Shown piece after piece: positions 1-10,905 of a stretch of 10,905 bases of DNA; position 1 is the stretch's first letter, and every line of letters starts with the position of its first letter. The stretch is from Desulfobacteraceae bacterium (GTDB taxonomy: Bacteria > Desulfobacterota > Desulfobacteria > Desulfobacterales > BuS5). Under the pieces are notes generated by a model. That model worked only from the letters and a program-made list of their open reading frames with translations. It was not told the DNA's origin and searched no databases. Made by a program: the position numbers and the translations under genes. The DNA lies in assembly GCA_030592105.1 (NCBI GenBank), contig JAUVKE010000058.1, positions 1 to 10,905 of the forward strand, read 5' to 3'.

Positions 1-1611
1 CAGGACCAAACGACTCAGTATCGTTTGCTGACCAAAGATCATGTTTCCGTGGCATCTTTTCTTGGTAAAAGGGTGATAAAAGTCGATGCAAAAGGATTGA
101 CACTCCTTGCTGAAGAAGCATTCAATGATGTATCTCATTTGTTAAGATCTTCCCATCTTAAACAATTGTCAGAGGTTTTTAAAGATGTTGAAGCTTCAGA
201 TAATGACAAATTTGTATGTCTTGAATTGATGAAAAATGCTGTAATTTCAGCTGAAGGTATTTTCCCCATGTGTCAGGATACAGGAACAGCTATTGTCCTT
301 GGACATAAAGGGCAGAGAGTCTGGACAGAATCTGTTGATAAGGAAGCCCTCTCCAGGGGTATTTTCAATGTTTATACAAAAAAGAATTTAAGATATTCTC
401 AAAATGCCCCATTAACTCTTTATGAAGAGGTAAACACAGGAAATAACCTCCCTGCACAGCTTGAGATATTTGCCCAGGAAGGAGAAGAATACCATTTTCT
501 CTTTATTGCAAAGGGCGCAGGATGTTCTAATAAGACATATCTGTATCAGGAAACAAAACCGTTGTTTAATGCAAGGAAATTATTTGAATTTATTGTTAAT
601 AAGTTAGAAACCATAGGGACTGCGGCATGTCCCCCATACCATTTTGCTGTGGTTGTGGGGGGGCTTACTCCTGAGGCTACTCTTAAAACAGTAAAGCTTG
701 CAACTGCGGGTTATTTGGACGAACTCCCTTCAAAGGGTGATATGACAGCCCATGCCATACGTGATCGTGAACTTGAAGATGAAATATTAAAGGCATCACG
801 TCTATTGGGGGTGGGGGCTCAGTTTGGAGGTAAATGTTTTTGCCATGACATCAGGGTTATCCGCCTTCCAAGGCATGGCGGGTCATGTCCCGTTGGGATA
901 GGGATAAGTTGCAGTGCCGACAGAAATATAAAGGCTAAAATAACTTGTGATGGTCTTTTTCTGGAGCAACTGGAAAAAAATCCTGCACAATTTCTTCCTG
1001 AGCCGGAAGAAACCGAAAGTGATATTATTTCCATTGATTTAAATAAATCAATGGATGAAATCAGAAAATCTTTGGGGAAATATCCCATTGGAACACGTCT
1101 TTTTTTAAATGGAAAAATGATTGTGGCAAGGGATATTGCCCATGCTAAATTTAAAGAACGGCTTGACAGGGGGGAGAGTCTCCCCGGGTATCTTGAAAAA
1201 TACCCCCTGTTTTACGCGGGTCCCGCAAAAACACCGAAGGGGTATCCTTCCGGTTCTTTTGGCCCCACAACAGCAGCCCGCATGGACCCGTATGTTCCTT
1301 TGTTTCAGAAAAATGGGGGCTCCCTGATAATGATTGCAAAGGGGAATCGTTCAAAAGCTATTACAGCATCGTGTAAAAAATATGGGGGATTTTATCTGGG
1401 CAGCATAGGAGGAGAGGCGGCAAGGCTGGGAGCAGAATGTATTTCAAAAATTGAGCTCCTTGAGTATCCTGAGCTTGGAATGGAAGCTGTATATATGATA
1501 ACGGTTCAAAATTTTCCAGCTTTTATTATTGTGGATGATAAGGGGAATGATTTCTTTGAACATATTATTAAAGTTCCTTTTGCCTATTCAGTTAAACCCC
1601 TTGTGGCATAG
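1..1611 (+). CDS. fumA: Class I fumarate hydratase, [4Fe-4S] type (5' end outside window)
   Basis: Catalyses reversible hydration of fumarate to (S)-malate in the cytoplasm, as part of an oxidative or reductive TCA pathway. The visible 536 residues cover nearly all of the FumA/FumB family (about 548 aa). All three cluster-ligand cysteines are present: codons at 271-273 (in CQDTGTA), 628-630 (in AACPPYH) and 910-912 (in SCSADRN). Also present are [32 protein letters not shown] and AKGNRSK, which form the substrate pocket in characterised class I fumarases. A TTG at 25 could be read as a start, but the frame is open from base 1. The residues before it (DQTTQYRLL) align with DAAQYHLL of the downstream paralogue, so the real start lies roughly 12 codons upstream of the window. 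The gene ends 38 bases before the start of the second fumarase homologue and is probably co-transcribed with it. The family assignment is secure; the symbol marks the family, not proven orthology. Confidence 0.95.
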
Positions 1612-1649: not shown

Positions 1650-3296
1650 ATGGATCCCTTTAAGTATCAGTCGATGTTTCCCATTGTGGCAGATGCTGCA
1701 CAATACCACCTTTTAACTACAGATTTTGTTAATGTTGAGTCTTTTGAAGGAACAGATGTTGTTGTAATTGCCCAGGAAGGTCTGACTCTTTTGGCTGAAC
1801 AGGCTTTTAAGGATGTCTCTTTTCATACCCGGCCGTCCCACCTGCAGCTTTTATCAAAAATTCTTGATGACCCTGAAAGTTCTAAAAATGACAAGCTTGT
1901 TGCACTGGCTATGATCAACAATGCCCTTGTGGCTTCTGAGTCCGAGTTCCCATTGAGTCAGGATACAGGGACTGCCATTATTAAAGCAAAAAAAGGGCAG
2001 CGGATATGGACAGATTTTTCTGACGAAGAAGCGCTTTCCAAAGGTGTTTTTAATGCTTATGTTAAAAATCCGTTGCGCTATTCAATAAACGCACCTTTTA
2101 GTATGTATGAAGAAAGTAATACAGGATGTAACCTTCCTGCCATGATTGAAGTCAATTGTGCAGGTGGGAATGAATATACTTTTATATTTATTGCCAAAGG
2201 ATCGGAATCGGCAAACAAAACATTTCTTTATCAGGAAACAAAGGCAATATTAAATCCTGAAAGCCTCATGGATTTTATGACGGAAAAAATGCGCCTCCTC
2301 GGAACCGGGGCAAGCCCTCCGTATCATCTTGTCTTTGTTATAGGGGGCACTTCCCCTGATGCGAATTTAAGGGCCGTTAGCCTGGCTACTTCCGGGTATC
2401 TGGACGACCTTCCCAGGCGGGGAAATAAAATGGGGCACGCTTTTCGCGATATTGACCTGGAAGATGAGGTGTTTAAAGCTTCGTGCGATCTTGGGATAGG
2501 CGCTCAGTTCGGTGGAAAATATTTTTGTCATGATGTTAAGGTAGTCAGGCTTCCAAGGCACGGTGGTTCTTGTTTTGTGGGGCTTGGGCTTGGCAGCGGT
2601 TCAGACAGGCGTATAAAAGGGAAAATTAACAGAAATGGAATTTTTCTCGAAAAAATTGAAACTGAATTCGAACAGTATCTCCCCAAAGAGCGACTCGATT
2701 ATCGTCCTGATGCTTTAATTGATTTAAACAGACCCATGGATGAAATACGAAAAGAGTTGGGGCGATACCCTGTGGCAACCCATCTTCAATTAAACGGCAA
2801 AATGGTTGTTGCAAGGGACATGGCCCATGCCAGAATTAATTCCCTCATCGAAAAAGGAGGGGAACTTCCGTGGTATTTGAAGAAATATGCCCTGTACTAT
2901 GCAGGACCTTCCAAAATCCCCGGTGGCTATTCTTCGGGTTCATTCGGACCCACAACCGCAAGCCGGATGGATCCCTATATTCCTTTGTTTCAGGAAAATG
3001 GAGGGGCTCTTGTTTCCGTTGGAAAGGGGAACAGATCCCAGGGGTTTGCAGATTCCTGTGAAAAGCATGGAGGTTTTTATCTTTGCTGCCCAGGGGGCAT
3101 GGCTGCGGTGATAGGAAAGGCATGCGTAACCGATATGGAGGTTATTGATTATCCCGACCTTGGCATGGATGCGGTATTTTTGATAACAGTAAAGAATTTT
3201 CATGTTTTTCTCATGGTGAATGATAAGGGGAATGATTTTTTCAAACAGGTTCTGGATCTTTCTTTTGCGTATACTGTGGAGCCCCATATCAAATAA
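1650..3296 (+). CDS. Class I fumarase homologue lacking all three Fe-S ligand cysteines
   Basis: A 548-residue, full-length class I fumarase homologue, clearly paralogous to the upstream gene, with long shared blocks such as QDTGTAI, NKTFLYQETK, GAQFGGK and GNDFF. Each cysteine that would bind the [4Fe-4S] cluster is serine: Ser103 (AGT 1956-1958), Ser222 (AGC 2313-2315) and Ser316 (AGC 2595-2597). Other pocket residues remain: Gln104, Asp105, Arg143, His304, Arg389, Thr435, Thr436, Arg439 and Lys459. Their spacing to the ligand positions agrees with what I recall of the Leishmania enzyme (Cys133, Arg173, Cys252, Cys346, Thr467, Lys491). Cysteines not seen in the upstream copy occur in NTGCNLP and as Cys479-Cys480 (LCCPGG, where the active type has LGSIGG). 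The cluster normally acts as Lewis acid on the substrate hydroxyl, so ordinary fumarase activity is doubtful. It may be a pseudoenzyme, a regulatory or heterodimer partner of the upstream enzyme, or a hydratase with other chemistry. The frame is intact and well conserved, which argues against a decaying pseudogene. Confidence 0.9.
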   Translation: MDPFKYQSMFPIVADAAQYHLLTTDFVNVESFEGTDVVVIAQEGLTLLAEQAFKDVSFHTRPSHLQLLSKILDDPESSKNDKLVALAMINNALVASESEFPLSQDTGTAIIKAKKGQRIWTDFSDEEALSKGVFNAYVKNPLRYSINAPFSMYEESNTGCNLPAMIEVNCAGGNEYTFIFIAKGSESANKTFLYQETKAILNPESLMDFMTEKMRLLGTGASPPYHLVFVIGGTSPDANLRAVSLATSGYLDDLPRRGNKMGHAFRDIDLEDEVFKASCDLGIGAQFGGKYFCHDVKVVRLPRHGGSCFVGLGLGSGSDRRIKGKINRNGIFLEKIETEFEQYLPKERLDYRPDALIDLNRPMDEIRKELGRYPVATHLQLNGKMVVARDMAHARINSLIEKGGELPWYLKKYALYYAGPSKIPGGYSSGSFGPTTASRMDPYIPLFQENGGALVSVGKGNRSQGFADSCEKHGGFYLCCPGGMAAVIGKACVTDMEVIDYPDLGMDAVFLITVKNFHVFLMVNDKGNDFFKQVLDLSFAYTVEPHIK

Positions 3297-3459: not shown

Positions 3460-6996
<3,537 letters not shown>

Positions 6997-7115: not shown

Positions 7116-7733
7116 ATGATTACTAAATGCGCAAGATGCGGAATTTGCTGCAATAAAGGGGGGCCTGCTTTTCATGTTGAGGATAAACCTATTCTTGAAA
7201 AAGGAGTGATTCCGCTGAAATTTCTTTTTACCATGAGAAAAGGGGAGCCTGTAAATGATAATCTCCAGGATCGTATTATTTCAGCTGATTCAGATATAAT
7301 AAAAATTAAAAGCCAGAAGGACTCCTCGGCCTGTATCTTTTTTGATGACACAGAAAAGAAGTGCCGGATTTATCAGAACAGACCCCTTGAATGCAAAGTT
7401 TTAAAATGCTGGGATATCAGGGAGATAAAAGAGATTTATTCTAAAAACAGAATTACAAGAAAAGACCTTCTGTCTGAGGTAGAACCCCTTTGGGATCTTG
7501 TTGAAACCCATCACAGGTTCTGTTCATATGATAAAATCAGATCTTTGTCAGATGATATTAATGCAGGAGACAAAAATGCCATTGAACAGGTCAATGAAAT
7601 AATAGGCTATGACACACATATCAGAGGGCTTGTGGTGGAAAAGGGGGGCGTGGAACCTGAAATGACAGATTTCCTTTTTGGGCGGCCTCTTTTAAAAACA
7701 ATAGGTATGCTTGGAATCAAGATAAAGGAGTAA
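7116..7733 (+). CDS. YkgJ-family cysteine-cluster protein (CxxCxxCC)
   Basis: A 205-residue soluble protein with the family signature: CARCGICC at the N terminus (Cys5, 8, 11, 12), then Cys73 in ACIFFDD and Cys83 in CRIYQNRP. Cys93 and Cys98 follow in ECKVLKC, and a ninth cysteine, Cys136, lies in HHRFCSY. Members are presumed metal- or Fe-S-binding and have no single agreed function. The C-terminal third (from about residue 140) has no motif I recognise. It is the first gene of a tight operon: its stop codon is 6 bases before the amidotransferase start, and its last codons contain that gene's ribosome binding site. Its own ATG has no convincing Shine-Dalgarno; the nearest purine stretch, AAAGG near 7090, is too far upstream. 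A role in maturation, metal supply or redox sensing for the two downstream enzymes is a guess from context only. Confidence 0.85.
   Translation: MITKCARCGICCNKGGPAFHVEDKPILEKGVIPLKFLFTMRKGEPVNDNLQDRIISADSDIIKIKSQKDSSACIFFDDTEKKCRIYQNRPLECKVLKCWDIREIKEIYSKNRITRKDLLSEVEPLWDLVETHHRFCSYDKIRSLSDDINAGDKNAIEQVNEIIGYDTHIRGLVVEKGGVEPEMTDFLFGRPLLKTIGMLGIKIKE
7724..7730 (+). promoter_or_regulatory. Ribosome binding site for the amidotransferase, inside the preceding gene
   Basis: AAAGGAG overlaps the last codons of the YkgJ-family gene, 9 bases before the TTG at 7740. Together with the need for cysteine at position 2 it fixes the TTG start and suggests translational coupling. Confidence 0.8.
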
Positions 7734-7739
7734 CAGGTT

Positions 7740-9641
7740 TTGTGCGGAATCCACGGTATAATATCCAGGTCTGACCCTGAAGATGAAATATGCGATAATT
7801 TATTTCAAATGGGAAAACTTCAGCGGCACAGGGGGCCTGATGCGTATAAAAATGAAGCTTACAGATTCAGGGATCTGTGTGTTGGATTTGGATTTGAACG
7901 TCTTTCCATATTGGACCTTCAGACCGGAATGCAGCCCATCAAATGTGAAATTGATGATTCAGTGATTATATGTAATGGTCAGGTTTATAATTATCTTGAG
8001 TTGAAACATATGGTCTCTTCAGAGCCCTTTGTAAGTAAGGGCGATATTGAAGTTGCATTACATTTATACAGAAAAAAAGGGGTCTCTTTCCTCGATTTTT
8101 TAAATGGAATGTACGGTGGGGCTATTTATGACCCAGCCAGGCACAGAGTCCTTTTGTTCAGGGACCGCTTCGGAATAAAACCTTTATATTATACTGAGTA
8201 TAATGGTAATTTTGTTTTTGCTTCTGAAATCAAACCGGTTCTTCAAGGGAGCAAAAGACCCCCTTTGCTGAATCAGAAAAAGCTTGGCACCTTTTTTTCC
8301 TACAGGTATCTTCCTGGAAATGAGACCATGTTTAAAGGTGTGTTCCGGCTTCCCCCGGGCTCTTTTCTTGATTATGATCTGGAAACCGGAAAGTATAATA
8401 TTGTCAGATACTGGGAGTATTCTTTTCCTCCGGAAAATCGAAAAATCTCCATTGGGGAAGCCGAAGAAGAGTTTTGCAATCTTTTTTCAGATGCTGTTAG
8501 TATCAGGCTCCGTTCAGATGTTGAAGTGGGCTGTTTTCTCAGTGGCGGCATCGATTCTTCTGCTGTTGCTCAACAGGCGGCTTCGTATAAATCAAATATT
8601 AAGCTTTTTTCCATCTCTTTTGCAGAACCTGAATATGATGAATTGCCCCTGATAAAAAATTTTATCAGTGCCAATAATAAAAATTTTAAGGATGTTACCC
8701 ATCATACAGGCTCCTGCGGCAAAAATTCCCTGGCACTTTTACCTGACATTATCCGCTGCACCGAAGATCCCATATCCCTGGGAGCCCTTCTCCCCACAGA
8801 CCATGTTTGCCGCCTTGCAAGTAATTATGTAAAAGTTGTACTTACAGGGGAAGGTGCCGATGAAATATTTGGAGGCTATCGAAAATTTCTCCTTGAGATG
8901 GCTGCAGTCCAATATCCTCAGCTTTCTTTACAAAAACAGAAAGATCTTGATCTTAAATACCCTGAACTTGCCCCCTATCTGAAGATTAGAGATCCTGACC
9001 CTGCCTTAAGATATATCCAGAGCGAGCTTCTCTTTACAAAAAAAGAACTTGGCAAGCTTATTGGGCAGGAAGCTGCAGCAAAAGAGACCCTTTGTCTTGA
9101 TGCCCTTCCTTTTTTAACCGGAGAGGAGCACCCTGTAAATGCGGCCATCTGCATGGAGAGCAGATTTCGCCTTCCTGATTATGTGATATTGCGCCTTGAC
9201 AAGCTCTCCATGCGTCATTCCCTTGAGGCACGCACCCCTTTTTTGGATTACAGGCTGGCTGAGTTTGCAGCAACTCTTCCTGCTGATTTTAAGATAAATC
9301 TCGATTCAGGGGAAGAAAAATTTATTTGCCGCCGGGCCTTTGCTCACAGCGGTATACTTGATGGGGAAACCGCATCCAGAAAAAAACAGCCCTTTACCAT
9401 ACCTTTGCCAAAATGGTTGTCTGAACCGGATAGCCTCCCGGAATTTTTTAAAGAAATAATGTGGGGTAATATTATAAAAAAACAGGGGATTTTAAATCCG
9501 GATATGGTACATAATCAGATAAAAAAGATTACCTCCAGGGACACAGGCCCGTCTACGCTTGTCTCAGAGGCTGATAGATTTTTTGCAATAGCTGTTTTTA
9601 CTATTTGGTATAACGAGTTTATAACCGGTTTGAATAAATGA
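7740..9641 (+). CDS. asnB: Glutamine-dependent asparagine synthetase-type amidotransferase
   Basis: A 633-residue AsnB-family enzyme, close in length to Bacillus AsnB. It uses glutamine-derived ammonia to amidate a carboxylate that it activates as an acyl-AMP. The N-terminal glutaminase domain (about 1-200) begins Met-Cys-Gly-Ile, giving the Cys2 nucleophile after a TTG start. It has RHRGPDA, Arg54 (FERLS) and Asp102 (GDIEV). The glutamine-site motif, usually NGE, is Asn79-Gly80-Gln81 here. The synthetase domain has the pyrophosphate loop SGGIDSS (268-274), TGEGADEIFGGY (Glu371) and SLEARTPFLD. AsnB itself makes asparagine, but homologues amidate other acids, including N-acetylglutaminylglutamine. 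The gene sits between a cysteine-cluster protein (6-base gap) and a glutamate-cysteine-ligase-like gene (4-base overlap), so a non-aspartate substrate made by that ligase is possible. The family is certain; the substrate is not, and the symbol marks the family only. Confidence 0.9.
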   Translation: MCGIHGIISRSDPEDEICDNLFQMGKLQRHRGPDAYKNEAYRFRDLCVGFGFERLSILDLQTGMQPIKCEIDDSVIICNGQVYNYLELKHMVSSEPFVSKGDIEVALHLYRKKGVSFLDFLNGMYGGAIYDPARHRVLLFRDRFGIKPLYYTEYNGNFVFASEIKPVLQGSKRPPLLNQKKLGTFFSYRYLPGNETMFKGVFRLPPGSFLDYDLETGKYNIVRYWEYSFPPENRKISIGEAEEEFCNLFSDAVSIRLRSDVEVGCFLSGGIDSSAVAQQAASYKSNIKLFSISFAEPEYDELPLIKNFISANNKNFKDVTHHTGSCGKNSLALLPDIIRCTEDPISLGALLPTDHVCRLASNYVKVVLTGEGADEIFGGYRKFLLEMAAVQYPQLSLQKQKDLDLKYPELAPYLKIRDPDPALRYIQSELLFTKKELGKLIGQEAAAKETLCLDALPFLTGEEHPVNAAICMESRFRLPDYVILRLDKLSMRHSLEARTPFLDYRLAEFAATLPADFKINLDSGEEKFICRRAFAHSGILDGETASRKKQPFTIPLPKWLSEPDSLPEFFKEIMWGNIIKKQGILNPDMVHNQIKKITSRDTGPSTLVSEADRFFAIAVFTIWYNEFITGLNK

Positions 9642-10606
9642 TATTAACAGATTTTAACCAAAAAATACTCCATAATTATACAAATCTGCTTTTCATAAAA
9701 ATTGAAGAGAATCTGTATAATTCACATTCCACATATGGTTTTGAATTTGAATTCCTTCCGAGTCGGGTTATGGATATTGCCCAGATGGAAAAGCTGAAGT
9801 CCTTTTTAGAAAAAGAAGGGTTAATAAAATATGAATCAGGGTTTATAGCAGAGAACGGGCTTATTATTACGTTTGAACCAGGAGGGCAGATAGAATATTC
9901 CAGCCCCCCTGTGATGATAGAAAATATTAAGCAATTTGAAAATCTTCTGGCGCAGGTTCAACATATAAACAGCATGATTTTAAAAAGGCTGAATATTAAA
10001 TATCTGTCAACAGATTATATCCCGGGCAGATCAGATGCGCCCCTTTGCCTTAAAGGGGAACGGTATATTAATCTGCATAAAAGGCTTGGTTTTTCCGGAA
10101 CAATGGGAAGAGAGATGATGAAAGGGACAGCATCTGTTCATCTCCATACAGGCTTGCTTTCCATGGATGAAATTCCTTTAATATATAAAATACTTTGCCT
10201 CATGGCAAAGAGCCGGGAATTCGGCATGTCCCAAAAGCGTAGAGAAATATGGAAAAATACTGATCCCCTGCGATGCAATATGCCTGAAATAGATTTTGAT
10301 AATACAGATGCCAGGGGGATACTGGGAAAAATAGTTCACCACGCATTATCAGTGCCTGATTTATATACGAACATACCTGTTTATAAAATGAACAACCTTA
10401 CCTTTGATTATTTTTTAATCCATTTATCCACAATATTTACCAGCGTGAGACTCAATATGAAAGGTCCTACATTTGAGCTTAGAACACTCGACAGCATGCC
10501 GGTTAAAGAGATGTTTGAGAAATTAAAACTTTTTATTGAGGTTCTGGAGAAAAAAAGAGGCTTGAGCAGATATAAATTTTCCCGGCTAAAAGGGACAAGG
10601 TCGTGA
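9638..10606 (+). CDS. Glutamate-cysteine ligase-like (GCS2, plant-type) carboxylate-amine ligase
   Basis: A 322-residue protein with the motif series of plant/EgtA-type glutamate-cysteine ligases. These are GFEFEF (34-39, metal/ATP-binding Glu36 and Glu38), EPGGQIEYSSPP (80-91), GREMMKGTASVHLH (157-170), RREIWKNTDPLR (201-212) and TFELRTLDSMP (278-288). Such enzymes join the gamma-carboxyl of glutamate to an amine, usually cysteine, using ATP. Characterised plant and mycobacterial relatives are longer (roughly 430 residues and more), so this is a short version, although the core motifs are all present. The ATG overlaps the stop of the amidotransferase gene (ATGA at 9638-9641) and has no Shine-Dalgarno, so it is probably translated by coupling. 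No glutathione synthetase (GshB) is visible in the window. The product could be gamma-glutamylcysteine or another gamma-glutamyl amide. A 91-base copy of its 3' part lies downstream at 10815. The family call is firm; the substrate is open. Confidence 0.8.
   Translation: MILTDFNQKILHNYTNLLFIKIEENLYNSHSTYGFEFEFLPSRVMDIAQMEKLKSFLEKEGLIKYESGFIAENGLIITFEPGGQIEYSSPPVMIENIKQFENLLAQVQHINSMILKRLNIKYLSTDYIPGRSDAPLCLKGERYINLHKRLGFSGTMGREMMKGTASVHLHTGLLSMDEIPLIYKILCLMAKSREFGMSQKRREIWKNTDPLRCNMPEIDFDNTDARGILGKIVHHALSVPDLYTNIPVYKMNNLTFDYFLIHLSTIFTSVRLNMKGPTFELRTLDSMPVKEMFEKLKLFIEVLEKKRGLSRYKFSRLKGTRS
10466..10556 (+). repeat. Direct repeat, copy 1 (inside the ligase gene)
   Basis: This part of the ligase gene, encoding residues 277-306 including the conserved FELRTLDSMP motif, recurs 349 bases downstream with 82 of 91 bases identical by my hand alignment and no indels. 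Confidence 0.9.
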
Positions 10607-10814: not shown

Positions 10815-10905
10815 CCTCCATTTGAGATTAGAATACTCGACAGCATGCCGGTTAAAGAGATGTTAGAGAAACTAAACCTTTTTATTGGGGTTTTTGAGAA
10901 AAAAA
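10815..10905 (+). pseudogene. Relic copy of the 3' end of the ligase gene (runs off the window)
   Basis: Direct repeat copy 2 of 10466-10556. The reading frame is colinear and encodes 30 residues including FEIRILDSMPVKEM, with 23 of 30 residues matching the intact gene. Of the nine base changes only one (TTA to CTA) is silent, and the others change seven amino acids; this is not the pattern of a gene under selection for its protein. An in-frame TAG (10812-10814) directly precedes the copy, and no start codon with a ribosome binding site opens it. It is best read as the decaying end of a tandem duplicate, or a duplicated gene end left by recombination. It continues past the window edge, so its full extent is unknown. 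Confidence 0.75.

What the first reader, a model, noticed from the sequence alone, without database searches (positions are those of the whole stretch)
1956..2597. Class I fumarase homologue with all three [4Fe-4S] ligand cysteines replaced by serine
Cys to Ser at all three cluster positions (codons 103, 222, 316), while Gln104, Asp105, Arg143, His304, Arg389, Thr435/436, Arg439 and Lys459 are kept at family spacing. Each serine codon (AGT, AGC, AGC) is one T-to-A step from a cysteine codon. Retaining the substrate pocket while losing the cluster in an intact 548-residue frame suggests selection for a new role: a substrate-sensing pseudoenzyme, a heterodimer partner, or a hydratase using serine-ligated metal or no metal.
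Basis: partly seen in the sequence, partly recalled or inferred. Interest (0 to 1): 0.75.

Follow-up and report, generated by a model that had tools for sequence, protein, structure and literature searches.

The report
Cluster-free twin of a bacterial fumarase
Beside a normal iron-sulfur fumarase gene, this bacterium carries a conserved twin that has lost every cysteine needed to hold the iron-sulfur cluster, so the twin probably works as a helper or sensor subunit rather than as an ordinary fumarase.

Summary
ORF2 (1650-3296, 548 aa) is a full-length class I fumarase homologue with Ser at all three [4Fe-4S] ligand positions. It is conserved: nine listed database proteins (68-95% identical, all 548 aa; four are near-copies of each other) also have Ser-Ser-Ser and form one clade with it, while 228 of 228 other fumarases compared and 8 of 8 of the ORF1 clade have Cys-Cys-Cys.

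ORF1 (1-1611), 38 bp upstream and 55% identical, is a paralogue that keeps the cysteines. The pocket is not fully kept: the place of active-site Gly216 is Glu186 in 10 of 10. And published work puts one active-site residue, His334, on the other chain; it is kept in 10 of 10. Both clades plus one outlier share a 19-residue C-terminal tail, so they look like an old duplication, and both now evolve at similar rates.

Best reading: a cluster-free pseudo-subunit that pairs with ORF1 and lends it a histidine (pairing inferred, about 0.5). A solo sensor or new chemistry is not excluded. Adjacency to ORF1 is shown here, probable on one more contig, unshown elsewhere.

The parts
1..1611 (+). ORF1: class I fumarase paralogue with all three ligand Cys (codons at 271-273, 628-630, 910-912); its 5' end is cut by the window edge
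517..525 (+). ORF1 loop Ala-Gly-Cys: extra Cys (codon 523-525) beside the active-site Gly; Cys in 8 of 8 of the ORF1 clade, Ser in 227 of 228 others
1552..1608 (+). ORF1 19-residue C-terminal tail shared with the ORF2 clade and P0167
1637..1640 (+). GGAG, likely ribosome-binding site of ORF2
   Evidence: sequence
1650..3296 (+). ORF2: triple-serine class I fumarase homologue, 548 aa
1956..1958 (+). Ser103 codon AGT (Cys133 of L. major)
2157..2159 (+). Cys170 codon, gained Cys, 10 of 10 in the clade, 0 of 228 others
2205..2207 (+). Glu186 codon GAA (place of active-site Gly216)
2313..2315 (+). Ser222 codon AGC (Cys252)
2484..2486 (+). Cys279 codon, gained Cys, 10 of 10 in the clade, 4 of 228 others
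2559..2561 (+). His304 codon CAC (His334, given by the other chain in the L. major dimer)
2595..2597 (+). Ser316 codon AGC (Cys346)
3084..3089 (+). Cys479-Cys480 codons, gained pair, 10 of 10 in the clade; 1 and 11 of 228 others
3237..3293 (+). ORF2 19-residue C-terminal tail
3463..6996 (+). pyruvate:ferredoxin oxidoreductase, downstream neighbour; next to a single fumarase in several relatives

Best explanation
ORF2 is a conserved, cluster-free pseudo-subunit that arose by duplication of a class I fumarase. Shown: it lost all three cluster ligands and the active-site glycine, kept the family fold (predicted) and nine other active-site residues, and is as constrained as its sister clade. Inferred: it pairs with ORF1. 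In class I fumarases each active site takes one histidine from the other chain, so an ORF1/ORF2 dimer would hold one working site (cluster of ORF1, His304 of ORF2) and one cluster-free pocket, altered by Glu186, that serves as a regulatory or structural site. This is how catalytically dead paralogues (prozymes) tune their partners in other enzymes.
For: Ser-Ser-Ser in 10 of 10, Cys-Cys-Cys in 228 of 228 others and 8 of 8 of the ORF1 clade. ORF1 lies 38 bp upstream on the same strand with no terminator-like site between the two genes. The best relatives of ORF2 and ORF1 (P0001 95%, P0122 93%) both have a longest contig of exactly 40,289 bases, which suggests a second such pair. Both clades split into two deep branches at similar identities to the window's copies (81 and 78%, then about 70%). 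Shared 19-residue tail and Gly306. Mean crown depth 0.320 against 0.364, invariant columns 301 of 545 against 296 of 533, seven rows each: no sign of decay. His304 kept in 10 of 10, and its L. major equivalent belongs to the other chain's active site. Both clades changed the same active-site loop, differently.
Against: No complex was shown or modelled. ORF1 has every active-site residue and could be a homodimer. Eight residues of ORF2's own pocket are also kept 10 of 10, more than lending one histidine needs; but 187 of 209 near-invariant columns are kept in general, so this says little either way. The sister relationship of the two clades has only modest support.
Confidence: 0.5

Rival explanations
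1. ORF2 is a stand-alone cluster-free protein (homodimer) that binds a dicarboxylate as a sensor or has a scaffold role, independent of the ORF1 enzyme.
For: Eight residues of its own pocket are kept in 10 of 10; adjacency to an ORF1-type gene is not shown in half of the clade.
Against: No added sensor, DNA-binding or signalling domain: only the two fumarase domains. Glu186 in the pocket speaks against plain binding of a dianion (inference). The ORF1 clade changed in the same loop.
Confidence: 0.22
2. ORF2 is an enzyme with a new kind of site: hydration or lyase chemistry without a cluster using Glu186 and the serines, or a different metal or redox site built from the gained cysteines 170, 279, 479 and 480.
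For: Four cysteines gained and fixed in 10 of 10 and rare in others (0, 4, 1 and 11 of 228); Glu186 fixed; pocket otherwise kept.
Confidence: 0.15
3. ORF2 is a decaying copy without function.
For: Catalytic ligands are lost.
Against: Nine listed homologues (about six distinct apart from the window) of the same length with the same serines; constraint similar to the sister clade.
Confidence: 0.02

Closest known systems
One-chain class I fumarate hydratases (L. major FH-2, 5l2r; E. coli FumA and FumB)
   Same: Both Pfam domains, same length class, 46% identity to L. major entries in the fold search, predicted fold TM about 0.85; nine of thirteen listed active-site residues
   Different: No cluster cysteines, Glu at the Gly216 place, gained cysteines 170, 279, 479 and 480, 19-residue tail
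Two-subunit class I fumarases and L(+)-tartrate dehydratases (e.g. M. jannaschii, 7xky)
   Same: Same two domains; a fumarase made of two gene products
   Different: There one domain per subunit; here two full-length paralogues, one of them without ligands
Prozyme pairs: trypanosomatid AdoMetDC/prozyme and deoxyhypusine synthase with its dead paralogue (PMC5201418, PMC3663545; start of abstracts seen)
   Same: Catalytically dead paralogue beside an intact one; there the dead one activates the other in a complex
   Different: Unrelated folds; complex and activation are not shown for ORF1/ORF2

Membership tests
Class I fumarase | Fumerase (PF05681) and Fumerase_C (PF05683) domains | tested here: met
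   206.2 and 220.1 bits against cut-offs of 25 and 22.2
Class I fumarase | NCBIfam models above their cut-offs | tested here: inconclusive
   TIGR00723 152.1 (cut-off 145.15) met; TIGR00722 76.6 (100.65) and the FumA/FumB equivalogs not met; ORF1 also misses TIGR00722 (91.1) and the equivalogs
Class I fumarase | Three Cys ligands of the [4Fe-4S] cluster | tested here: not met
   Ser103, Ser222, Ser316
Class I fumarase | Remaining active-site residues of the L. major enzyme | tested here: not met
   Nine of ten kept; Gly216 is Glu186 in 10 of 10. Numbering of eight of the thirteen places was computed; the five C-terminal ones rest on the alignment
Class I fumarase | Fold | tested here: met
   AlphaFold2 pLDDT 78.7, pTM 0.81; 23 best PDB matches are L. 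major fumarate hydratases; a prediction only
Class I fumarase | Fumarate hydratase activity | not testable with these tools
   needs purified protein
Prozyme-type pseudoenzyme pair | Dead paralogue and intact paralogue in one genome | tested here: met
   ORF1 and ORF2 in this window; deadness inferred from sequence
Prozyme-type pseudoenzyme pair | Conserved co-occurrence of the two | tested here: inconclusive
   window, and probably the 40,289-base contig; not shown for the 54,855- and 21,290-base contigs
Prozyme-type pseudoenzyme pair | Physical complex that changes the partner's activity | not testable with these tools
   no complex prediction or assay available

The most novel reading that the evidence does not exclude
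The triple-serine clade holds a new kind of site in the class I fumarase fold: chemistry without a cluster around Glu186 and the three serines, or a new metal or redox site made by the four gained cysteines, working with a partner whose own active-site loop has gained a cysteine.
Probability: 0.15. Interest if true: 0.85.

Novelty: new variant of a known kind. Interest (0 to 1): 0.6.

Why it matters
If the pairing is right, this is a natural half-dead fumarase dimer in which one subunit acts on catalysis only through a histidine lent to its neighbour. That would make the role of the cross-chain histidine of class I fumarases directly testable, and show how an oxygen-sensitive iron-sulfur enzyme can acquire a cluster-free control subunit. 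If the pairing is wrong, the fold has been put to a use that the papers searched here do not describe.

Tried and rejected
Pseudogene or sequencing error: rejected. Ligand cysteines moved elsewhere: Cys293, 308, 470 and 492 are common family cysteines, not replacements; the gained ones are kept as a rival. Virus or plasmid: no relative confirmed in viral contigs; plasmid matches are all under 60% identity (188 records).

More members in whole genomes: in 389 Desulfobacterales genomes 286 have a match at E 1e-200, best 888.6 bits; the six best were fetched and are all Cys-Cys-Cys; at most three candidates per genome were scored, and the others were not read. No match at 1e-266 in 395 genomes of the phylum, nor at 1e-290 for the ORF1-clade profile in 389 genomes; the tool warns for both that an empty answer without a positive control shows nothing. 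G160, close to the window's organism (AsnS 91%, CxxC 86%, GCS2 86% identical), has no class I fumarase match, but holds only about 1.6 Mb and may be incomplete.

The ORF1 model is poor (pLDDT 66.1, pTM 0.62) and was not used. dN/dS between orthologues was not possible, as only their proteins were at hand. A motif scan for the tail missed its P0167 copy, which I judged by length and by eye.

Full report
Observation. ORF2 runs from ATG 1650 (GGAG at 1637-1640) to 3296 and encodes 548 aa with both fumarase domains. The residues named as kept are all there.

It is a clade. A search of about 5.8 billion proteins scored 7,999 candidates and listed 120: nine at 68-95% identity, then a gap to 62%. All nine have Ser-Ser-Ser and 548 aa. 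P0005 to P0008 are near-copies of one another, so with ORF2 there are about seven distinct sequences. They form one clade (SH-aLRT 100 in a 92-row tree; 100/100 for the six members used in a 54-row careful tree; ligand columns blanked). The 228 other fumarases in the set, taken from the two listings and from fetched loci, all have Cys-Cys-Cys, as do the eight of the ORF1 clade. Members further down the 7,999 were not seen.

The neighbour. Frame 1-1611 is another class I fumarase, its start cut by the window edge, 55% identical to ORF2 and with all three cysteines. It belongs to a clade of eight (93-70% identity) with the loop Gly-Ala-Gly-Cys-(Ser/Ala)-Asn-Lys, where the common form is Gly-Gly-Gly-Ser-Ala-Asn-Lys. 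ORF2's clade has Ser-Glu at the second and third places. Of 209 columns with one residue in at least 95% of the 228 others, 22 are changed in the ORF2 clade and 9 in the ORF1 clade, two of them in both. Both clades and one outlier, P0167, end in a tail of 19 residues after the KGND motif; among the other 215 rows with a readable end none has 19, and the 13 with 14 to 17 residues read differently. They share Gly306, found in two of 228 other rows, one of them P0167. The three groups form one side of a branch with modest support (80; 81/71). The two clades alone as sisters are not rejected (p-AU 0.775 and 0.303), but P0167 groups with the ORF1 clade at 96/88. The likely history is duplication in one lineage, loss of the ligands in one copy on a long stem (0.41 against 0.18), and then constraint similar to that of the sister: mean crown depth 0.320 against 0.364, invariant columns 301 of 545 against 296 of 533 (seven rows each).

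Active site. A list for the L. major enzyme, read in a passage of PMC10602362, names twelve residues of chain A (three Cys, Gln134, Asp135, Arg173, Gly216, Arg421, Thr467, Thr468, Arg471, Lys491) and His334 of chain B. In the triple-serine clade the three Cys and Gly216 are replaced in 10 of 10 and the other nine kept in 10 of 10. Glu186 at the Gly216 place would disturb normal substrate binding (inference). The cross-chain histidine is of no use to a homodimer with two dead sites but would be of use to a heterodimer with ORF1 (inference). Cysteines 170, 279, 479 and 480 are fixed in the clade and found in 0, 4, 1 and 11 of 228 others.

Fold. AlphaFold2 with 60 aligned sequences gave pLDDT 78.7 and pTM 0.81 for ORF2, with residues 145-161 and short stretches below 50. 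Foldseek puts L. major fumarate hydratases in the first 23 places, TM about 0.85. ORF1 gave pLDDT 66.1 and pTM 0.62; I do not interpret this.

Setting. After ORF2 come PFOR (3463-6996), a CxxCxxCC protein, an asparagine synthase-like protein and a GCS2-like protein. No terminator-like site lies between ORF1 and ORF2, and one weak promoter-like site (1623-1651) overlaps the start; promoter-like hits in that region are no more than shuffles give. The window looks like this common locus with the fumarase doubled. The closest relative of its GCS2 protein is named as from a Desulfobacteraceae MAG (93%), so the organism is probably a member of that group. In the four held genomes of G160's family three have a class I fumarase match, and none has a class II fumarase over the family's cut-off, though two have weak matches below it. 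Class I enzymes are therefore probably the main fumarases there (inference; some of these genomes may be incomplete).

Conservation of the pair. P0001 and P0122, the best relatives of ORF2 and ORF1, both have a longest contig of 40,289 bases, which suggests one contig. For P0005 and P0009 the same reasoning links the triple-serine gene to GCS2-like genes (54,855 and 21,290) but not to an ORF1-type gene (120 listed of 8,000). So adjacency is shown once, probable once and not shown in the other half of the clade.

Literature. Ten searches of the open library showed no paper on a cluster-free class I fumarase: 'fumarase' with 'pseudoenzyme' gave none; four terms on inactive paralogues gave one preprint, seen in the listing only and on another subject by its title. 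One search served the prozyme comparison (listing and start of abstracts). Passages were seen of PMC3565967, PMC10602362 and PMC4682846. Most subscription journals are missing, so this is weak evidence of absence.

Verdict. The best reading is a pseudo-subunit working with ORF1; the complex and its effect are inferred.

Noticed in passing
window 10815-10905: 91 bases at the window end are 90% identical to 10466-10556, the 3' part of the GCS2-like gene: a partial direct duplication, followed by the window edge.
   Followed up: partly
window 7740-10606; L059-L068: An asparagine synthase-like gene and a glutamate-cysteine-ligase-like (GCS2) gene overlap by four bases here and stand side by side in nine of ten Desulfobacterales loci: a conserved pair that may make or modify a small peptide or amide.
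   Followed up: partly
window 7116-7733: CxxCxxCC (putative zinc- or iron-chelating, PF03692) protein between PFOR and asparagine synthase; in L058 it follows the fumarase directly.
   Followed up: no
P0167 (longest contig 10,298 bases): A Cys-Cys-Cys fumarase with the shared 19-residue tail and Gly306 but without the loop changes of either clade; it may show the state near the duplication.
   Followed up: partly
window 517-525 (ORF1) and P0122-P0128: The cluster-bearing partner clade has its own fixed active-site-loop change, a Cys beside the active-site Gly in 8 of 8, which could alter specificity or add a redox switch.
   Followed up: partly
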